Positions 33,700 to 39,254 of a stretch of 64,000 bases of DNA are shown here, in pieces. A model generated the notes under the pieces. The model worked only from the letters and a program-made list of their open reading frames with translations, was not told the origin of the DNA and did not search any database. The stretch is from NCBI RefSeq assembly GCF_004078635.1, contig NZ_RZNB01000002.1:248001-312000 (forward strand), in the 5' to 3' direction. This DNA comes from Labedella phragmitis (GTDB taxonomy: Bacteria; Actinomycetota; Actinomycetes; Actinomycetales; Microbacteriaceae). Position numbers and translations under genes: made by a program. Every line of letters starts with the position of its first letter. The stretch's first letter is position 1.

Positions 33700-34014
33700 C
33701 GGCCGGTCGGGGATCCGTGGGTATAATGGTGTACGGACCCGTTCGGGCCCCGGGATCGTCGGCTTCGACTCGATCATCGTTCGCTTCGGGAGACTGAGGT
33801 GGCCAGGTCGGGACGTACCGCGATCGAAGCGGAAGCTGATCGTACGATCGGCGCGCGCCGCCCGGGACTTGACATGGGTCCTCGTACTGCCCGAAATCTC
33901 GTCGTGTCCCGCACGGCGAGGCTCGGACGGTGAAGCTCGACGATTCTGTCCGACAACGCAACCCGAGCCCGGTAGGCGCACATCTCACGCCGCTCGGACC
34001 GAAAGGTGTTCGCA
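33700..34014 (+). promoter_or_regulatory. sigA upstream region with two candidate promoters
   Basis: A 315-bp region without a gene. It holds a perfect TATAAT at 33722-33727 (no good -35) and a perfect TTGACA at 33869-33874 followed after 17 bases by CGAAAT at 33892-33897. Either would give a leader of more than 100 nt before the sigA ATG at 34015. Both are inferred by eye. Confidence 0.5.
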
Positions 34015-35346
34015 ATGGCAACCAAGACCGCTCCGACGAAGGCTGACGCCGCCGTCGACGAGGAGCAGACGACCACACGGACGACGACGACCAAGACCGC
34101 CGCCACGAAGAAGGCCGCCGCCACGAAGGCCGCGCCGAAGACGAAGGCGGCCCCCAAGACCAAGGCCGCCGCGGCGAAGAAGACCGCGGCGCCGGCCGGC
34201 GACGACGCCGAGCCCGATGACGTCGAGGCCGTCGACGAGGCCGACGTCGCCGATGTCGTCGACACGCCCGACGTCGCAGACGACGCCGCTCCCGAGGCCG
34301 TCGTCGCCGAGGACGCGGACGAGGACGCGGCTCCCGTCGCCGCGGTCGAACCGCTCCCGCAGGGAGCCCTCGTCCTGTCGATGACGGACGACGAGGACGA
34401 GGTCCCCGTCTACTCGTCGGCCATCACCGGTGCGACCGCCGACCCCGTCAAGGACTACCTCAAGCAGATCGGTAAGGTCGCGCTCCTCAACGCGGCCGAA
34501 GAGGTCGAGCTCGCCATGCGGATCGAGGCGGGACTGTTCGCCGAGGAGAAGCTCTCGCACCTGAGCGAGCAGGAGAAGCGCACCCAGCTGGGCCGCGAAC
34601 TCCTCTGGGTCGCGAAGGACGGGCAGCGCGCCAAGAGCCACCTCCTCGGGGCGAACCTGCGCCTCGTCGTCTCGCTCGCCAAGCGCTACACGGGTCGCGG
34701 CATGCAGTTCCTCGATCTCATCCAGGAAGGCAACCTCGGTCTCATCCGTGCGGTCGAGAAGTTCGACTACACCAAGGGCTTCAAGTTCTCGACGTACGCG
34801 ACGTGGTGGATCCGTCAGGCGATCACGCGTGCTATGGCCGACCAGGCGCGTACCATCCGCATCCCCGTGCACATGGTCGAGGTCATCAACAAGCTCGCCC
34901 GCGTTCAGCGGCAGATGCTGCAGGACCTCGGCCGCGAGCCCACGCCGGAAGAGCTCAGCCGGGAGCTCGACATGACCCCGGAGAAGGTCATCGAGGTCCA
35001 GAAGTACGGCCGCGAACCGATCTCCCTCCACACGCCCCTCGGTGAGGACGGCGACAGCGAGTTCGGTGACCTCATCGAGGACACCGAAGCCGTCGTGCCG
35101 GCAGACGCCGTCGGGTTCACGATGCTGCAGAAGCAGCTCGAGAGCCTCTTGGACTCCCTCTCGGAGCGCGAGGCCGGTGTCATCCGGATGCGCTTCGGTC
35201 TCGGCGACGGCATGCCGAAGACGCTCGACCAGATCGGCGACACCTTCGGCGTCACGCGCGAGCGCATCCGGCAGATCGAGTCGAAGACCATGGCGAAGCT
35301 GCGGCACCCGAGCCGGTCGCAGTCGCTGCGGGACTACCTCGAGTAG
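34015..35346 (+). CDS. sigA: Principal RNA polymerase sigma factor (SigA/HrdB type)
   Basis: The housekeeping sigma factor. The 443-residue protein has a long N-terminal region rich in Lys-Ala-Thr repeats (about residues 15-65) followed by an acidic stretch, as in other actinobacterial primary sigmas. Then come region 1.2 ([21 protein letters not shown]), region 2 with [20 protein letters not shown] and the -10 recognition segment [19 protein letters not shown], region 3, and region 4.2 ([20 protein letters not shown]). GAAAGG lies eight bases before the ATG at 34015; a GTG at 34006 is less well placed. Four bases separate it from the murT-like gene. Confidence 0.98.
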
Positions 35347-35350
35347 ATCG

Positions 35351-36628
35351 ATGGGTCTCCGCTACACCGTTCCCATCCTCATCGGTCGGTTGGCCAGGAC
35401 AGCCACGCGGGCACGCGGCGGCGGCTCCGCCTATCCCGGGCACCTCGTCAACCGGCTCGCGCCGAGCTACCTGCCGAGCCTTCCCGACCAGTTGCCCGGC
35501 GGCGTCGTGTTCGTGCTCGGCTCGAACGGCAAGTCGACGACCACGCACATGGTCTCCGAGCTGCTGCGCGCCCATGGCCTCAAGGTCTTCACCAACCCGA
35601 CGGGCGCGAACCTGCCGCAGGGCGTCACGAGCGCACTGCTCAGCGAGGTGAGCCTCACGGGGAGGCTCTCGGCCGACGTCGCGGTGCTCGAGATCGACGA
35701 GGCGTACGCCGTCAAGCTGGCGCAGACGCTGCGCCCGTCGATCGTGCTCATGCTCAACGTGCAGGTCGACCAGCTCTTCCGCTTCTACGAGACGGAGCGC
35801 GTCGCCGACATGATGATCGACACGGGTGTCCTCGCGGAGTCCCACGTCGTGACGAACCGCGAGGACCCGTACCTGAGCAAGGTCGGGCGGAAGATCACCG
35901 ACGATCGCCCCGCGGTGTCCTACTTCGGAGCGAGCTCCGACGTCGTGGCTTCGTCCGCCCACGGTCTCGTGAACGCGGAGGACTTCCGCGACCCCGAGGC
36001 CGTCGGCGATGTCGACGCAGCCTCCGAGGTCGTCGCGTGGTCGGGGACGACCGCGCGGATCGCCATCGGGGGTGACGAGCTCGACATCGTGCTGCCCGCC
36101 CGCGGTCTTCACTACGCGGTCGACGCCGCAGCCGCGCTGCAGACGGCACGGCTCGTGCTCGAGTCGCAGTTCTCGGCGTCGCGAGCGGTCGAAGCGTTCC
36201 GCGTCATGAGGCCTGCTTACGGTCGAGGCGAGCTCTTGCGCTTCGGCCAGGAGGACGTCGAGATCACGATGTTCAAGAACGGGGCGAGCCTCCAGCTCAA
36301 CCTCGACGCGTTCGACACGCCGCCGGAGCAGGTGTTGCTCGCGATCGACGAGGGTACTCCCGACATCTCCTGGATCTACGACGTCGACTTCTCGGCTCTC
36401 GACCACGTCGACGTCATCTCCGGCGCGAAGGGCTGGCAGGTCGCTTTGCGTCTCGAGCACGCTGGTATCCCCGTCCACCACGTGGAGCCGGAACTCAAGA
36501 AGGGCATCGAGATCATGCGGGGCATGCCCGCGCCGACGTCGGGCCGGAAGGCCTGGATCGTCAACTACGAACAGATGATGTACGCGCGGAAGCTCGTCGG
36601 TCAGGGTGACATGGAGATCGCACGATGA
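35351..36628 (+). CDS. murT: MurT-like Mur-ligase-family protein without the zinc ribbon
   Basis: A 425-residue homologue of MurT, the synthetase half of MurT-GatD, which normally amidates the alpha-carboxyl of D-Glu in lipid II. The ATP loop GSNGKST (57-63), the Mur-ligase core and the C-terminal DUF1727 domain are present, with PDISWIYDVDF holding the Asp (338) of the proposed catalytic site. The protein contains no cysteine, so the Cys4 zinc ribbon of characterised MurT is missing. The usual NPAG-like segment reads FKNGASLQ. It starts four bases after sigA and overlaps the gatD-like gene by ATGA. A changed nucleophile is suspected (see findings). Confidence 0.88.
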   Translation: MGLRYTVPILIGRLARTATRARGGGSAYPGHLVNRLAPSYLPSLPDQLPGGVVFVLGSNGKSTTTHMVSELLRAHGLKVFTNPTGANLPQGVTSALLSEVSLTGRLSADVAVLEIDEAYAVKLAQTLRPSIVLMLNVQVDQLFRFYETERVADMMIDTGVLAESHVVTNREDPYLSKVGRKITDDRPAVSYFGASSDVVASSAHGLVNAEDFRDPEAVGDVDAASEVVAWSGTTARIAIGGDELDIVLPARGLHYAVDAAAALQTARLVLESQFSASRAVEAFRVMRPAYGRGELLRFGQEDVEITMFKNGASLQLNLDAFDTPPEQVLLAIDEGTPDISWIYDVDFSALDHVDVISGAKGWQVALRLEHAGIPVHHVEPELKKGIEIMRGMPAPTSGRKAWIVNYEQMMYARKLVGQGDMEIAR

Positions 36629-37374
36629 GCATCGACGCGGAGAACCTCGACATCCTGCAGGTGTATCCGGACGAGCTCGGAGTCACGGGTGACAGCGGCA
36701 ACGTCCTCGCGATCGCGACGCGTGTCCGACGTGCCGGCGCGACAGCGACGGTCCGCCACCATCGAATCGGTGACGCGACGCCGGAGCGTCCGGACGTCGT
36801 CGTGATCGGCAACGGCCCGCTCTCGGCCGTGCGCTCGGTACTCGATGACGCCAGACGGCTCGGTCCGGTGCTCGGCGATTGGGTCGCCGCCGGGGTTCCA
36901 CTCCTCGCCGTGGGTGCCGGGATGGAGCTGCTCGGTCAGCGCATCCTGACACCGGAACGCGAGTCCATCGACGGTCTCGGGATCTTCCCGATCACGACCG
37001 ATCGCGCAGGCTCGCGCCACGCCGGCTACCTCGTCGTCGAGTCGCCCGTCGGACCGATCGTCGGCTTCGAGGACCACCGCACGACTACGACGTGGGCGGA
37101 CGGCGCCGTTCCGTTCGGCCGAGTGACCGCAGGAGTCACGGGCACCGCGGGATCCGCGGACGGGATCCGGGTCGCCAACGCGATCGGAACCCGCGTTCAG
37201 GGTCCCGTCCTGCCCCTCAACCCCGTATTGACCGACTTTCTCATCGCTCGTGCGCTCGAGCGCCGCGGCGTCGACTGGTCCGCGTCCTCGGCGCACGACG
37301 AACTCGACCGGCTCGCGTCTGAGGCCCGCGCGGTCATCCTCGCGAACATCGATCACGTCTTCAGCACGATCTGA
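36625..37374 (+). CDS. gatD: GatD-like glutamine amidotransferase homologue lacking catalytic Cys and His
   Basis: A 249-residue class I amidotransferase-fold protein corresponding to GatD along its whole length (DSGNVLAIATRVRRAG; LTPERESIDGLGIFPITTD; VGFEDH). In GatD the nucleophile lies in the ICGGYQ-LG motif; here the aligned segment is AVGAGMELLG, so Gly97 replaces Cys. The catalytic His of the YLHGPILPKN motif is Gln192 in RVQGPVLPLN. The protein has no cysteine anywhere. It therefore should not hydrolyse glutamine. ATGA overlap with murT implies a tight complex. It may be a structural partner, or a binding site for another amine donor. Confidence 0.88.
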   Translation: MSIDAENLDILQVYPDELGVTGDSGNVLAIATRVRRAGATATVRHHRIGDATPERPDVVVIGNGPLSAVRSVLDDARRLGPVLGDWVAAGVPLLAVGAGMELLGQRILTPERESIDGLGIFPITTDRAGSRHAGYLVVESPVGPIVGFEDHRTTTTWADGAVPFGRVTAGVTGTAGSADGIRVANAIGTRVQGPVLPLNPVLTDFLIARALERRGVDWSASSAHDELDRLASEARAVILANIDHVFSTI

Positions 37375-37384
37375 CGTCCCGGTC

Positions 37385-38122
37385 ATGGGCCCCGTTCGTG
37401 AAGCGCGCGTCCTCGTGGACGCGCTGACGGAGAACATCGCCGTACTCGACCGGGCAGGCGTCCTCATCGACGTGTCGGCCGACGCGTACGGTCACGGCGT
37501 CGTCCGGGTCGCGGAAGCGGCTCGGACGGTCGGCGTCCGCTCGTTCTTCGTCGCGACGGCGGACGACGCGTTGCGGACGGCATCGCTCGTTCCGGACGCC
37601 GACCTCGTCGTGGGCCGGGTCGCCGAGGGGCGACGGGACGAGATCGCGGCAGCCGGAATCGCCGTGTCCTCGGAGCGGGCCGGCGAACGGGTCGAGCGTG
37701 ACAGCGTCTACGGTTTCGACGGACGAGCGTCGGCAGCCATGTCGTTGCGGTCCCGGGTGCTGGCGACGAAAGCGATCCGCGCCGGCGACGGCGTCTCGTA
37801 CGGATACACCTACCGAGCACCCCGGGACGGGCGCACGGCGCTCGTGGGGATCGGGTACGGCGACGGAGTGCACCGACACGCGGGGAACACAGCCTTCGTC
37901 CTCCTCGACGGGGCCATGCTTCCCGTCGTCGGTCGAGTGGCCATGAACGTCTTCGTCGTCTTCCTCGGAGACCGGCGTGTAGACGATGGCGCCGACGTCG
38001 TCCTGTTCGGGGACGAGCGCTCCGGTGAGCCGCCCCTGACGCGGTGGGCCGCGGCCCTCGGCGTTCAGCCCGCCTCCGTCACCGCGGGCATCGGCGCTCG
38101 AGTCGAGAGGACGGTTCGATGA
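37385..38122 (+). CDS. Alanine-racemase-like subunit A: Tyr domain kept, PLP lysine lost
   Basis: A 245-residue protein related to PLP-dependent alanine racemase (usually about 370). The start of the barrel is recognisable, but VSADAYGHG has Ser31 where VKADAYGHG carries the PLP lysine, and most of the barrel (about 120 residues) is missing. The C-terminal beta domain is well kept: the catalytic Tyr139 in DGVSYGYTY, then LVGIGYGDGV and VVGRVAMNVFVVFLG (Asn188 where Asp is usual). It begins ten bases after gatD and overlaps the next gene by ATGA. It should be inactive alone but could supply the Tyr to a partner's active site. Confidence 0.87.
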   Translation: MGPVREARVLVDALTENIAVLDRAGVLIDVSADAYGHGVVRVAEAARTVGVRSFFVATADDALRTASLVPDADLVVGRVAEGRRDEIAAAGIAVSSERAGERVERDSVYGFDGRASAAMSLRSRVLATKAIRAGDGVSYGYTYRAPRDGRTALVGIGYGDGVHRHAGNTAFVLLDGAMLPVVGRVAMNVFVVFLGDRRVDDGADVVLFGDERSGEPPLTRWAAALGVQPASVTAGIGARVERTVR

Positions 38123-39177
38123 GCGCGGACGTCTGGGCGGAGATCGATCTCGACGCCTACCGGCGGAACCTGCGACTCGTGCAGCGGAGGGTCGCTCCGG
38201 CTGAGGTCATGACCGTCGTGAAGAACGACGCGTACGGGCACGGCATCGCCGCCGTCGTGGCGACCGCCGTCGGGGAGGGGGTGCGGTTCGTCGGAGTCCT
38301 CGACGCAGCCGTCGGCGTCGGACTCCGTGCGTCGGGGCTCCCGCGCTCCGTCCGCCTCTTCGCGTGGCTCTTCGCTCCCGACGAGGACTACAGAGCGGCC
38401 GCCGCCGCGGGCGTCGAGCTCGGTGTCTCGAGCGTCGACCAGCTCCGGCGGATCGTCTCCACGACGTCGACCGGTGCGTCGGGTGCCGTTCCGCGCGTGC
38501 ACGCGAAGATCGACACGGGACTCGGCCGTGCCGGAGCGCGCCCGGAGGACTGGCCGGCGCTCATCGCGGCCATCGACGCCGAGGCCGACGCCGGACGCGT
38601 CGAGTTCTCCGGCATGTGGACCCACATCGCCGAGGCGTCGGACGCCGAGGACTCCGCGTCGATCGCCGCTTTCGAATCCGCGACGCTCGAAGTGCCACCG
38701 CGGCGGCGCGATGGCCTCGTCCGACACCTTGCGGCGAGCGCCGCGTCCTTCGAGCGTGCCGACAGCCGCTTCGACCTCGTCCGGGTGGGGGCATTCGGCT
38801 ACGGGATCGCGCCAGGGGGAGGCGTCTCGCCGTCATCGCTCGGTCTCACGCCCGTGATGTCGCTGCGCGCGCGCGTCATCGATCGTGTCGGCGACTCGGC
38901 GGTGATCCCGGTCGGCGCGGCGGACGGCCTCCCCGACGCCGTGCACGGGCTCGAGGGCGCGGCCGCGGGACGTCGTGTCGCGTTGAGCATCGGTCTGACC
39001 GAGACGCTCGTCGCCGACCCGACGCTCGATCCCGGCGACGTCGTCACGCTGTTCGGTCGCGAGGACCGCGGCGAGCCGACGCTCCAGGAGTGGGCGGACG
39101 CGCTCGGGACGATCGGCGAGGAGATCGTCGTCCGGCTGTCGCGTCGGATCGAGCGACGGGTCTCGGGGGAGTCATGA
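38119..39177 (+). CDS. Alanine-racemase-like subunit B: PLP lysine kept, Tyr strand lost
   Basis: A 352-residue relative of alanine racemase with a full-length PLP barrel. Lys35 in VVKNDAYGHG is the PLP lysine, and the KxDTG..R motif is intact (Lys130, Arg137), as are WTHIAEASDAED and DLVRVGAFGYGIAP. The C-terminal domain is degenerate. The strand with the catalytic Tyr (VSYG) is absent between RARVIDRVGD and SAVIPVGAADG, and the GR.xMD motif is replaced by GRRVALSIG. Start ATG overlaps the stop of subunit A. The two proteins have complementary losses, suggesting an obligate heterodimer. The amino acid substrate is unknown. A hairpin terminator follows. Confidence 0.87.
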   Translation: MSADVWAEIDLDAYRRNLRLVQRRVAPAEVMTVVKNDAYGHGIAAVVATAVGEGVRFVGVLDAAVGVGLRASGLPRSVRLFAWLFAPDEDYRAAAAAGVELGVSSVDQLRRIVSTTSTGASGAVPRVHAKIDTGLGRAGARPEDWPALIAAIDAEADAGRVEFSGMWTHIAEASDAEDSASIAAFESATLEVPPRRRDGLVRHLAASAASFERADSRFDLVRVGAFGYGIAPGGGVSPSSLGLTPVMSLRARVIDRVGDSAVIPVGAADGLPDAVHGLEGAAAGRRVALSIGLTETLVADPTLDPGDVVTLFGREDRGEPTLQEWADALGTIGEEIVVRLSRRIERRVSGES

Positions 39178-39198
39178 CCGTCACGCCCCGGACATGAC

Positions 39199-39230
39199 GA
39201 ACGGCCGCCACGAGATCGTGGCGGCCGTTC
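39199..39230. terminator. Terminator after the racemase-like pair
   Basis: A perfect 15-bp GC-rich inverted repeat (39199-39213 and 39216-39230) with a two-base loop, between the convergent ends of the sigA-murT-gatD-racemase run and the DUF7455 gene. It marks the 3' end of that gene run. Confidence 0.85.
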
Positions 39231-39254
39231 CGTCGTCTCGTCGGCGGAAACCGA

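What the first reader, a model, noticed from the sequence alone, without database searches (positions are those of the whole stretch)
35351..39177. Candidate type B peptidoglycan cross-bridge module: murT*-gatD*-alrA*-alrB*
The four genes run with ATGA overlaps or gaps of ten bases or fewer and end at a strong terminator. Established knowledge: MurT-GatD modifies the alpha-carboxyl of D-Glu2 in lipid II, and Microbacteriaceae have type B peptidoglycan in which that same carboxyl carries the cross-bridge, often with a D-diamino acid. A MurT-GatD pair without glutaminase chemistry beside a probable new racemase could make a D-amino acid and ligate it to D-Glu2. To my knowledge the enzymes for this step are not established.
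Basis: inference. Interest (0 to 1): 0.93.

Follow-up and report, generated by a model that had tools for sequence, protein, structure and literature searches.

The report
Swappable cell-wall cross-bridge locus, split racemase
Beside its main sigma-factor gene this Labedella-like bacterium carries a ligase pair that seems rebuilt to hang an amino acid on the cell-wall peptide and two half-dead racemase genes that can only form a working active site together; relatives keep the racemase but swap in unrelated ligases, so the locus probably helps build the long-unexplained type B cell-wall cross-bridge.

Summary
In detail: murT*, gatD*, alrA*, alrB* follow sigA with ATGA overlaps and one 10-base gap. 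The type B cross-bridge reading is supported by comparative genomics, not proven, and needs revision. (1) GatD* has lost the catalytic Cys (Gly97): 0 of 79 named loci keep it, 13 of 80 unnamed family loci do, 20 of 20 outgroup loci do. (2) AlrA* and AlrB* are reciprocal wrecks: AlrB* has the PLP lysine but not the Tyr265 segment, AlrA* the tyrosine but not the lysine, in 44 of 44 aligned pairs. Since alanine-racemase sites are shared between subunits, I infer an obligate heterodimer with one composite site. Agreia has a second, mirror-image pair. (3) Of 130 family genomes, 24 lack MurT; 18 of these have a CofE-like ligase (0 of 106 with MurT), usually beside an ATP-grasp ligase. In 11 such AlrA*B* loci read, the replacement ligases sit with the racemase. 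(4) Class I MurT* genomes have two or more racemase C-domains in 44 of 49, other MurT genomes in 12 of 57. Best reading: AlrA*B* makes a D-diamino acid that MurT*-GatD* (elsewhere CofE-like plus ATP-grasp) ligates to D-Glu2. Substrates and reactions are untested.

The parts
34006..35346 (+). sigA-type sigma factor gene, fixed upstream neighbour of the variable locus
   Evidence: ORF (446 aa); named from its sequence (recalled family); similar 420-470-aa genes precede the locus in relatives
35351..36628 (+). murT*: Mur ligase without zinc ribbon, P-loop GSNGKSTTTHM and Asp338 kept
36625..37374 (+). gatD*: GATase-like partner; catalytic Cys replaced by Gly97, His151 kept in the window
37385..38122 (+). 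alrA*: racemase half with Tyr139 (VSYGYTY) but Ser31 in place of the PLP lysine; about half the barrel missing
38119..39177 (+). alrB*: racemase half with PLP Lys35 (VVKNDAYGHG) but without the Tyr265 segment
39200..39229 (+). 13-bp G+C-rich hairpin after alrB*, candidate terminator without T-run

Best explanation
The four genes carry out one cross-bridge step of type B peptidoglycan. AlrA* and AlrB* form a heterodimer. In alanine racemase each active site takes the PLP lysine from one subunit and the catalytic tyrosine from the other, so the pair has one complete site (Lys35 of AlrB* with Tyr139 of AlrA*) and one dead site. The AlrB*-type barrel is not that of alanine racemase and most likely takes a diamino acid (ornithine or 2,4-diaminobutyrate). 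MurT*-GatD* activates the alpha-carboxyl of D-Glu2 as ordinary MurT-GatD does, but without glutamine hydrolysis lets the D-amino acid, not ammonia, attack. Shown here: gene order, residue losses and their complementarity, separate barrel lineage, co-occurrence, exchange of ligases. Inferred: the dimer, the substrate, the ligation.
For: Cys lost in 79 of 79 named and 67 of 80 unnamed family loci, kept in 20 of 20 outgroup loci, while the MurT* P-loop and Asp338 stay. Reciprocal Lys/Tyr loss in 44 of 44 aligned pairs. AlrB* and the second gene of tandem alr pairs form one barrel clade apart from Alr (0.998 in 82 tips; 0.785 in 96 tips). AlrA*B* adjoin gatD* in 30 of 80 named and 19 of 80 unnamed loci, in two orientations. 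Two or more racemase C-domains in 44 of 49 class I genomes against 12 of 57 other MurT genomes. The 11 named genomes without AlrA*B* beside murT* that were searched have tandem full-length alr instead. Where MurT is missing, amide-forming ligase families take its place beside AlrA*B*, in one locus with a diaminobutyrate transaminase gene.
Against: No substrate, complex or product was tested. 5 of 49 class I genomes have a single racemase C-domain. Rhodoluna has D-Dab without AlrA*B*. The 927,303-base genome (Tropheryma by recall) has AlrA*B* as its only Alr-like barrel, and Agreia lacks full-length Alr, so split racemases may also serve D-Ala. 13 of 80 family loci keep the GatD Cys and 6 of 130 genomes have neither MurT nor the CofE-like gene. 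The diaminobutyrate transaminase was found in one locus only. Statistics ignore relatedness.
Confidence: 0.6

Rival explanations
1. AlrA*B* is a second alanine or serine racemase for D-Ala supply, and MurT*-GatD* adds glycine, an L-amino acid or ammonia from another source. Linkage only reflects common wall function.
For: Agreia and the 927,303-base genome have no full-length Alr, so a split pair must supply D-Ala there unless it comes from elsewhere. Class II MurT, also Cys-less, mostly occurs with one racemase (21 of 27 genomes in the 375-500-bit band).
Against: The AlrB*/T2 barrel is a clade apart from Alr, and in the Labedella-like genome two full-length Alr are present besides. Agreia's second pair has an Alr-like barrel and could be its alanine racemase.
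Confidence: 0.25
2. MurT*-GatD* still amidates D-Glu2, using free ammonia, and the racemase is unrelated to it.
For: MurT* keeps the ATP site and Asp338.
Against: The same position of the genome holds CofE-like and ATP-grasp ligases in relatives, and these genes exclude MurT (0 of 106 against 18 of 24); Cys loss occurs in several distinct classes.
Confidence: 0.1
3. Decaying pseudogenes without function.
For: Each protein lacks a catalytic residue, and AlrA* shrinks to 159-187 aa in four relatives.
Against: The loss is complementary in 44 of 44 pairs and kept even in a 0.93-Mb genome; frames are open and both racemase halves model as Alr folds with pLDDT 88.5 and 91.9.
Confidence: 0.04

Closest known systems
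MurT-GatD lipid II isoglutaminyl synthase (S. aureus; PMC6113224 seen in passages; PMC3266927 seen in search listings only)
   Same: Gene pair, Mur ligase with ATP site, GATase partner, Asp counterpart of D349; presumed target D-Glu2 alpha-carboxyl
   Different: Catalytic Cys lost (Gly97), zinc ribbon absent, no glutaminase chemistry expected
Alanine racemase (Alr, PF01168 + PF00842)
   Same: Fold of both proteins: best match 5fac, S. coelicolor Alr, Z 24.6 over 244 residues and Z 41.9 over 349
   Different: Each chain holds only one half of the catalytic pair; barrel lineage apart from Alr; usual Alr is a homodimer (recalled)
Racemase plus ATP-grasp ligase for D-Asp cross-bridges of enterococci and lactococci (Aslfm/Racfm; recalled, not examined here)
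   Same: Works like it: a racemase and a ligase together supply a D-amino acid to a cross-bridge
   Different: Other enzyme families, attachment expected at D-Glu2 instead of the Lys side chain
CofE F420-0:glutamate ligase (PF01996) and sugar-transfer-associated ATP-grasp (PF14397)
   Same: Families of the replacement ligases in MurT-less relatives
   Different: The one CofE-like protein scanned gives 20-30 bits against CofE models with cut-offs of 180-304, and sits in a racemase locus

Membership tests
MurT-GatD isoglutaminyl synthase | GatD catalytic Cys (C94 of S. aureus) | tested here: not met
   Gly97 in the window; 0 of 79 named loci have Cys
MurT-GatD isoglutaminyl synthase | MurT ATP site and Asp counterpart of D349 | tested here: met
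   GSNGKSTTTHM and Asp338, invariant in 14 aligned rows for G57-K61 and D338
MurT-GatD isoglutaminyl synthase | Score above the curated family cut-off | tested here: not met
   MurT 99 of 800 bits, GatD 97.5 of 450 bits
Alanine racemase | PLP lysine and catalytic tyrosine in the same chain | tested here: not met
   AlrA* lacks Lys, AlrB* lacks the Tyr segment; 44 of 44 pairs
Alanine racemase | Alr fold | tested here: met
   Predicted structures, Z 24.6 and 41.9 to 5fac
Alanine racemase | Racemisation of alanine | not testable with these tools
   needs enzyme assay
Type B cross-bridge synthesis module | Confined to type B organisms | tested here: inconclusive
Type B cross-bridge synthesis module | Amino acid placed on the alpha-carboxyl of D-Glu2 | not testable with these tools
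   needs lipid II assay or muropeptide mass spectrometry

The most novel reading that the evidence does not exclude
The sigA-parE interval of Microbacteriaceae is a chemotype locus. It encodes a heterodimeric D-diamino acid racemase whose subunits became mutually dependent by losing opposite halves of the active site (at least twice, once in mirror image), together with one of several mutually exclusive ligase modules (Cys-less MurT-GatD of class I, II or IV, or CofE-like with ATP-grasp) that decide which amino acids bridge type B peptidoglycan: MurT*-GatD* alone adds one D-diamino acid, a first ligase with ATP-grasp adds two residues, and lack of the racemase gives an L-diamino acid bridge.
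Probability: 0.5. Interest if true: 0.92.

Novelty: new variant of a known kind. Interest (0 to 1): 0.87.

Why it matters
Type B peptidoglycan is a classic taxonomic marker, yet I found no paper naming the enzymes of its cross-bridge (searches, in an open-licence library). [quoted passage not shown] The locus gives named genes, residues and a testable code from genome to wall chemistry. The racemase is also a clean natural case of a homodimer becoming an obligate heterodimer, with a mirror-image replicate in Agreia.

Tried and rejected
Rejected: decay or chance (44 of 44 reciprocal pairs); MurT*-GatD* as universal type B ligase (24 of 130 genomes lack MurT). Pfam MurT_C (211 of 299 genomes) and the GatD alignment (245 of 299, only part of the first-look candidates scored) mix classes or under-report; I relied and took genomes whose best hit was weaker than E 1e-10 as MurT-less. 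IQ-TREE failed on threads and then timed out, so the trees are FastTree; the larger barrel tree is weaker (0.785) than the smaller (0.998), and the AlrA* C-domains form no single clade in the short C-domain tree, so their origin is open. One search printed no locus names and was repeated. One search misplaced the PLP site of four AlrA* (L014, L018, L066, L068); one search shows D, D, S, S there. L240 (ordinary alr) and L241 (a mur gene region) were fetched and not used in the counts. The gene caller missed several AlrA*; one search recovered them. One search found no paper on a heterodimeric alanine racemase. The wall type of Aurantimicrobium was not in the passages seen. The 44 pairs and 80 unnamed loci are not independent: some share a genus, and three genomes (G050, G060, G111) gave two loci each.
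Full report
WHAT IS THERE. The closest named loci to the window are Labedella populi and L. endophytica, 93-94% identical in MurT*. After sigA (34006-35346) lie murT* (35351-36628), gatD* (36625-37374), alrA* (37385-38122) and alrB* (38119-39177), with ATGA overlaps and one 10-base gap. A 13-bp hairpin follows at 39200-39229 (z -5.6 for 39178-39250), without a T-run. The genome has one MurT_C hit and four Ala_racemase_C hits: AlrA*, AlrB* and two full-length Alr.

MURT*-GATD*. MurT* keeps the P-loop and Asp338, by motif the counterpart of S. aureus MurT D349 (PMC6113224 seen in passages). GatD* aligns with S. aureus GatD over residues 8-229 but has Gly97 for C94. His151, counterpart of H189, is kept in the window and in 58 of 79 named loci; the rest have Asn, Leu, Gln, Val or a gap. 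Of the 80 named loci, 79 have a readable GatD and none has Cys at that position (73 Gly, 4 Ala, 2 Thr). Of 20 outgroup loci from 8 other families of the order, 20 keep it, and none has an alr in the fetched stretch. MurT_C scores are 65-104 bits in all 77 outgroup genomes with a hit (85 of 248 genomes had a hit, 8 of them in the family) and 37 bits here.

CLASSES. Within the family I sort MurT-GatD into five kinds. Class I, like the window: mostly TPDxSWIY, no CxxC, Cys lost. Class II: GSSGKSTTTKM and VRDPSYFW, Cys lost. Class III: Cys kept, like the outgroups. Class IV: CxxC kept (two in most), Cys lost. Class V: CxxC and Cys kept. Some loci fit no class well (for example L143, L155, L156, L164, L167, L169, L180, L181). 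Most class II and the class IV loci share flanking DNA with named class I loci; class III and V loci show little or none. Some genera hold several classes: g34 I and IV, g38 and g44 II and IV, g61 I-like and IV.

THE SPLIT RACEMASE. AlrA* reads DVSADAYGHG where the genome's own Alr reads VVKADGYGHG, so the PLP lysine is gone, but keeps VSYGYTY with the catalytic tyrosine. AlrB* keeps VVKNDAYGHG but has a deletion where the tyrosine belongs. In one alignment of 140 sequences, 44 are of kind A, 44 of kind B, 52 full-length and none otherwise. At the lysine position the 44 A have R (24), T (5), S (3), A (3), G (3), D (2) or a gap (4: the barrel start is missing). So the same loss was fixed in many forms. 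Both halves model as Alr folds (pLDDT 88.5 and 91.9; Z 24.6 over 244 and 41.9 over 349 residues to S. coelicolor Alr 5fac); AlrA* lacks about half the barrel. That Alr active sites are shared between two subunits is established knowledge, recalled, as are the residue numbers Lys39 and Tyr265. One composite site per heterodimer follows; the dimer itself is inferred.

HISTORY. The barrel of the second tandem gene (T2) groups with AlrB*: 40 of 82 tips at 0.998; an exact split of 54 of 96 tips at 0.785. The first gene (T1) groups with Alr. Agreia has no full-length Alr but two split pairs. The second runs B'-A'; its B' barrel falls with T1 and Alr, its A' C-domain with T2 (0.842). So that tandem split the other way round: the first gene lost the Tyr segment, the second the Lys. 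This suggests that T1 and T2 already formed mixed dimers and that specificity sits in the PLP barrel; both are inferences.

LINKAGE AND SWAPS. AlrA*B* lie by gatD* in 30 of 80 named loci (26 on the same strand, 4 convergent and up to about 1.5 kb away) and 19 of 80 unnamed ones. In 130 evenly drawn family genomes 106 have a MurT and 24 do not. Class I genomes (at least 500 bits) have two or more Ala_racemase_C domains in 44 of 49, other MurT genomes in 12 of 57 (p 2.9e-13, uncorrected for relatedness; the domain count is a proxy for a second racemase). In one search I fetched AlrA*B* loci of 11 MurT-less genomes, of two with an unusual MurT (G049, G112) and of one class I genome (G006). All 11 hold a CofE-like gene and 9 also an ATP-grasp gene; 3 CofE-like and 5 ATP-grasp proteins were checked with Pfam. 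A search of all 242 held sequences finds neither in a class I or II locus; it finds ATP-grasp in four class IV loci and L164 and a weak CofE-like match in L180 and L239. Genome-wide, CofE-like genes of at least 370 bits occur in 18 of the 24 MurT-less genomes and 0 of the 106 others (p 2.6e-17, same caveat); G049 and G112 have a divergent one (about 155 bits) beside their MurT. ATP-grasp genes occur in 21 of 130 genomes; in 16 a copy lies within about 3 kb of the CofE-like gene, in the other 5 within about 1 kb of a MurT. MurT and CofE-like genes replace each other inside genera g7, g9, g53, g54 and g70, which counts for more than the totals. One Humibacter-like locus (L232) has sigA, CofE-like, alrA*, alrB*, a diaminobutyrate transaminase (603 bits, cut-off 552) and ATP-grasp on one strand; no other held locus has that transaminase at similar strength. 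Humibacter walls contain ornithine and DAB (PMC6346192, passage).

WALL CHEMISTRY. Microbacterium species have D-Orn, L-Lys or DAB, varying inside clades (PMC10757982, passages), as a locus with and without racemase would allow; which unnamed genera are Microbacterium is not established. A table gives Orn and B2beta for Frondihabitans, DAB for Lacisediminihabitans, Lys and Orn for Salinibacterium (PMC7033078, passages). D-Dab in Clavibacter and D-Orn in Curtobacterium are recalled. Against a simple rule: Rhodoluna lacicola (closed genome 1,430,433 bp, the length of contig G009:C1) has D-Dab, type B2beta (PMC4156110, passages), with one full-length Alr and a Cys-less MurT-GatD (L155). The 927,303-base genome, Tropheryma by recall, has MurT*-GatD*, AlrA*B* and no other Alr barrel, so the pair may also make D-Ala there.

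VERDICT. Most likely a D-diamino acid is made by an AlrA*/AlrB* heterodimer and ligated to D-Glu2 by MurT*-GatD*: about 0.6 for the whole chain, about 0.9 for joint catalysis by the two racemase halves, about 0.75 for MurT*-GatD* as a non-amidating wall ligase. It is a new variant of known kinds (Alr, MurT-GatD, racemase-ligase bridge pairs). Searches showed no paper on it, in a library that lacks most subscription journals.

Noticed in passing
L096:2415-4354 and L097:2282-4320 (Agreia): A second split racemase pair in mirror image: the first gene keeps the lysine and lost the tyrosine segment, the second the reverse; Agreia has no full-length alanine racemase.
   Followed up: yes
L226-L228, L231-L234, L236, L237: CofE-like (PF01996) and ATP-grasp (PF14397) ligase genes stand beside alrA*-alrB* in genomes without MurT: candidate new cross-bridge ligases.
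   Followed up: partly
L172-L179: A further Cys-less GatD (LFTHNALEVLG) with a CxxC-bearing MurT (class IV), beside an ATP-grasp gene in L173, L175, L176 and L179.
   Followed up: partly
L168 (genome with one 927,303-base contig, Tropheryma by recall): A strongly reduced genome keeps murT*-gatD* and an alrA*-alrB* pair, its only Alr-like barrel.
   Followed up: partly
L232:4902-6170 (- strand): EctB-type diaminobutyrate transaminase gene inside a racemase-ligase locus of a Humibacter-like genome.
   Followed up: partly
L163 and L159 with L121 and L116 (genomes G050 and G060): Genomes that hold both a class I Cys-less MurT-GatD and an ordinary Cys-bearing one.
   Followed up: no
L075: A record titled Acidobacteria bacterium carries the Microbacteriaceae-type locus; probably a mis-binned metagenome contig.
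   Followed up: no
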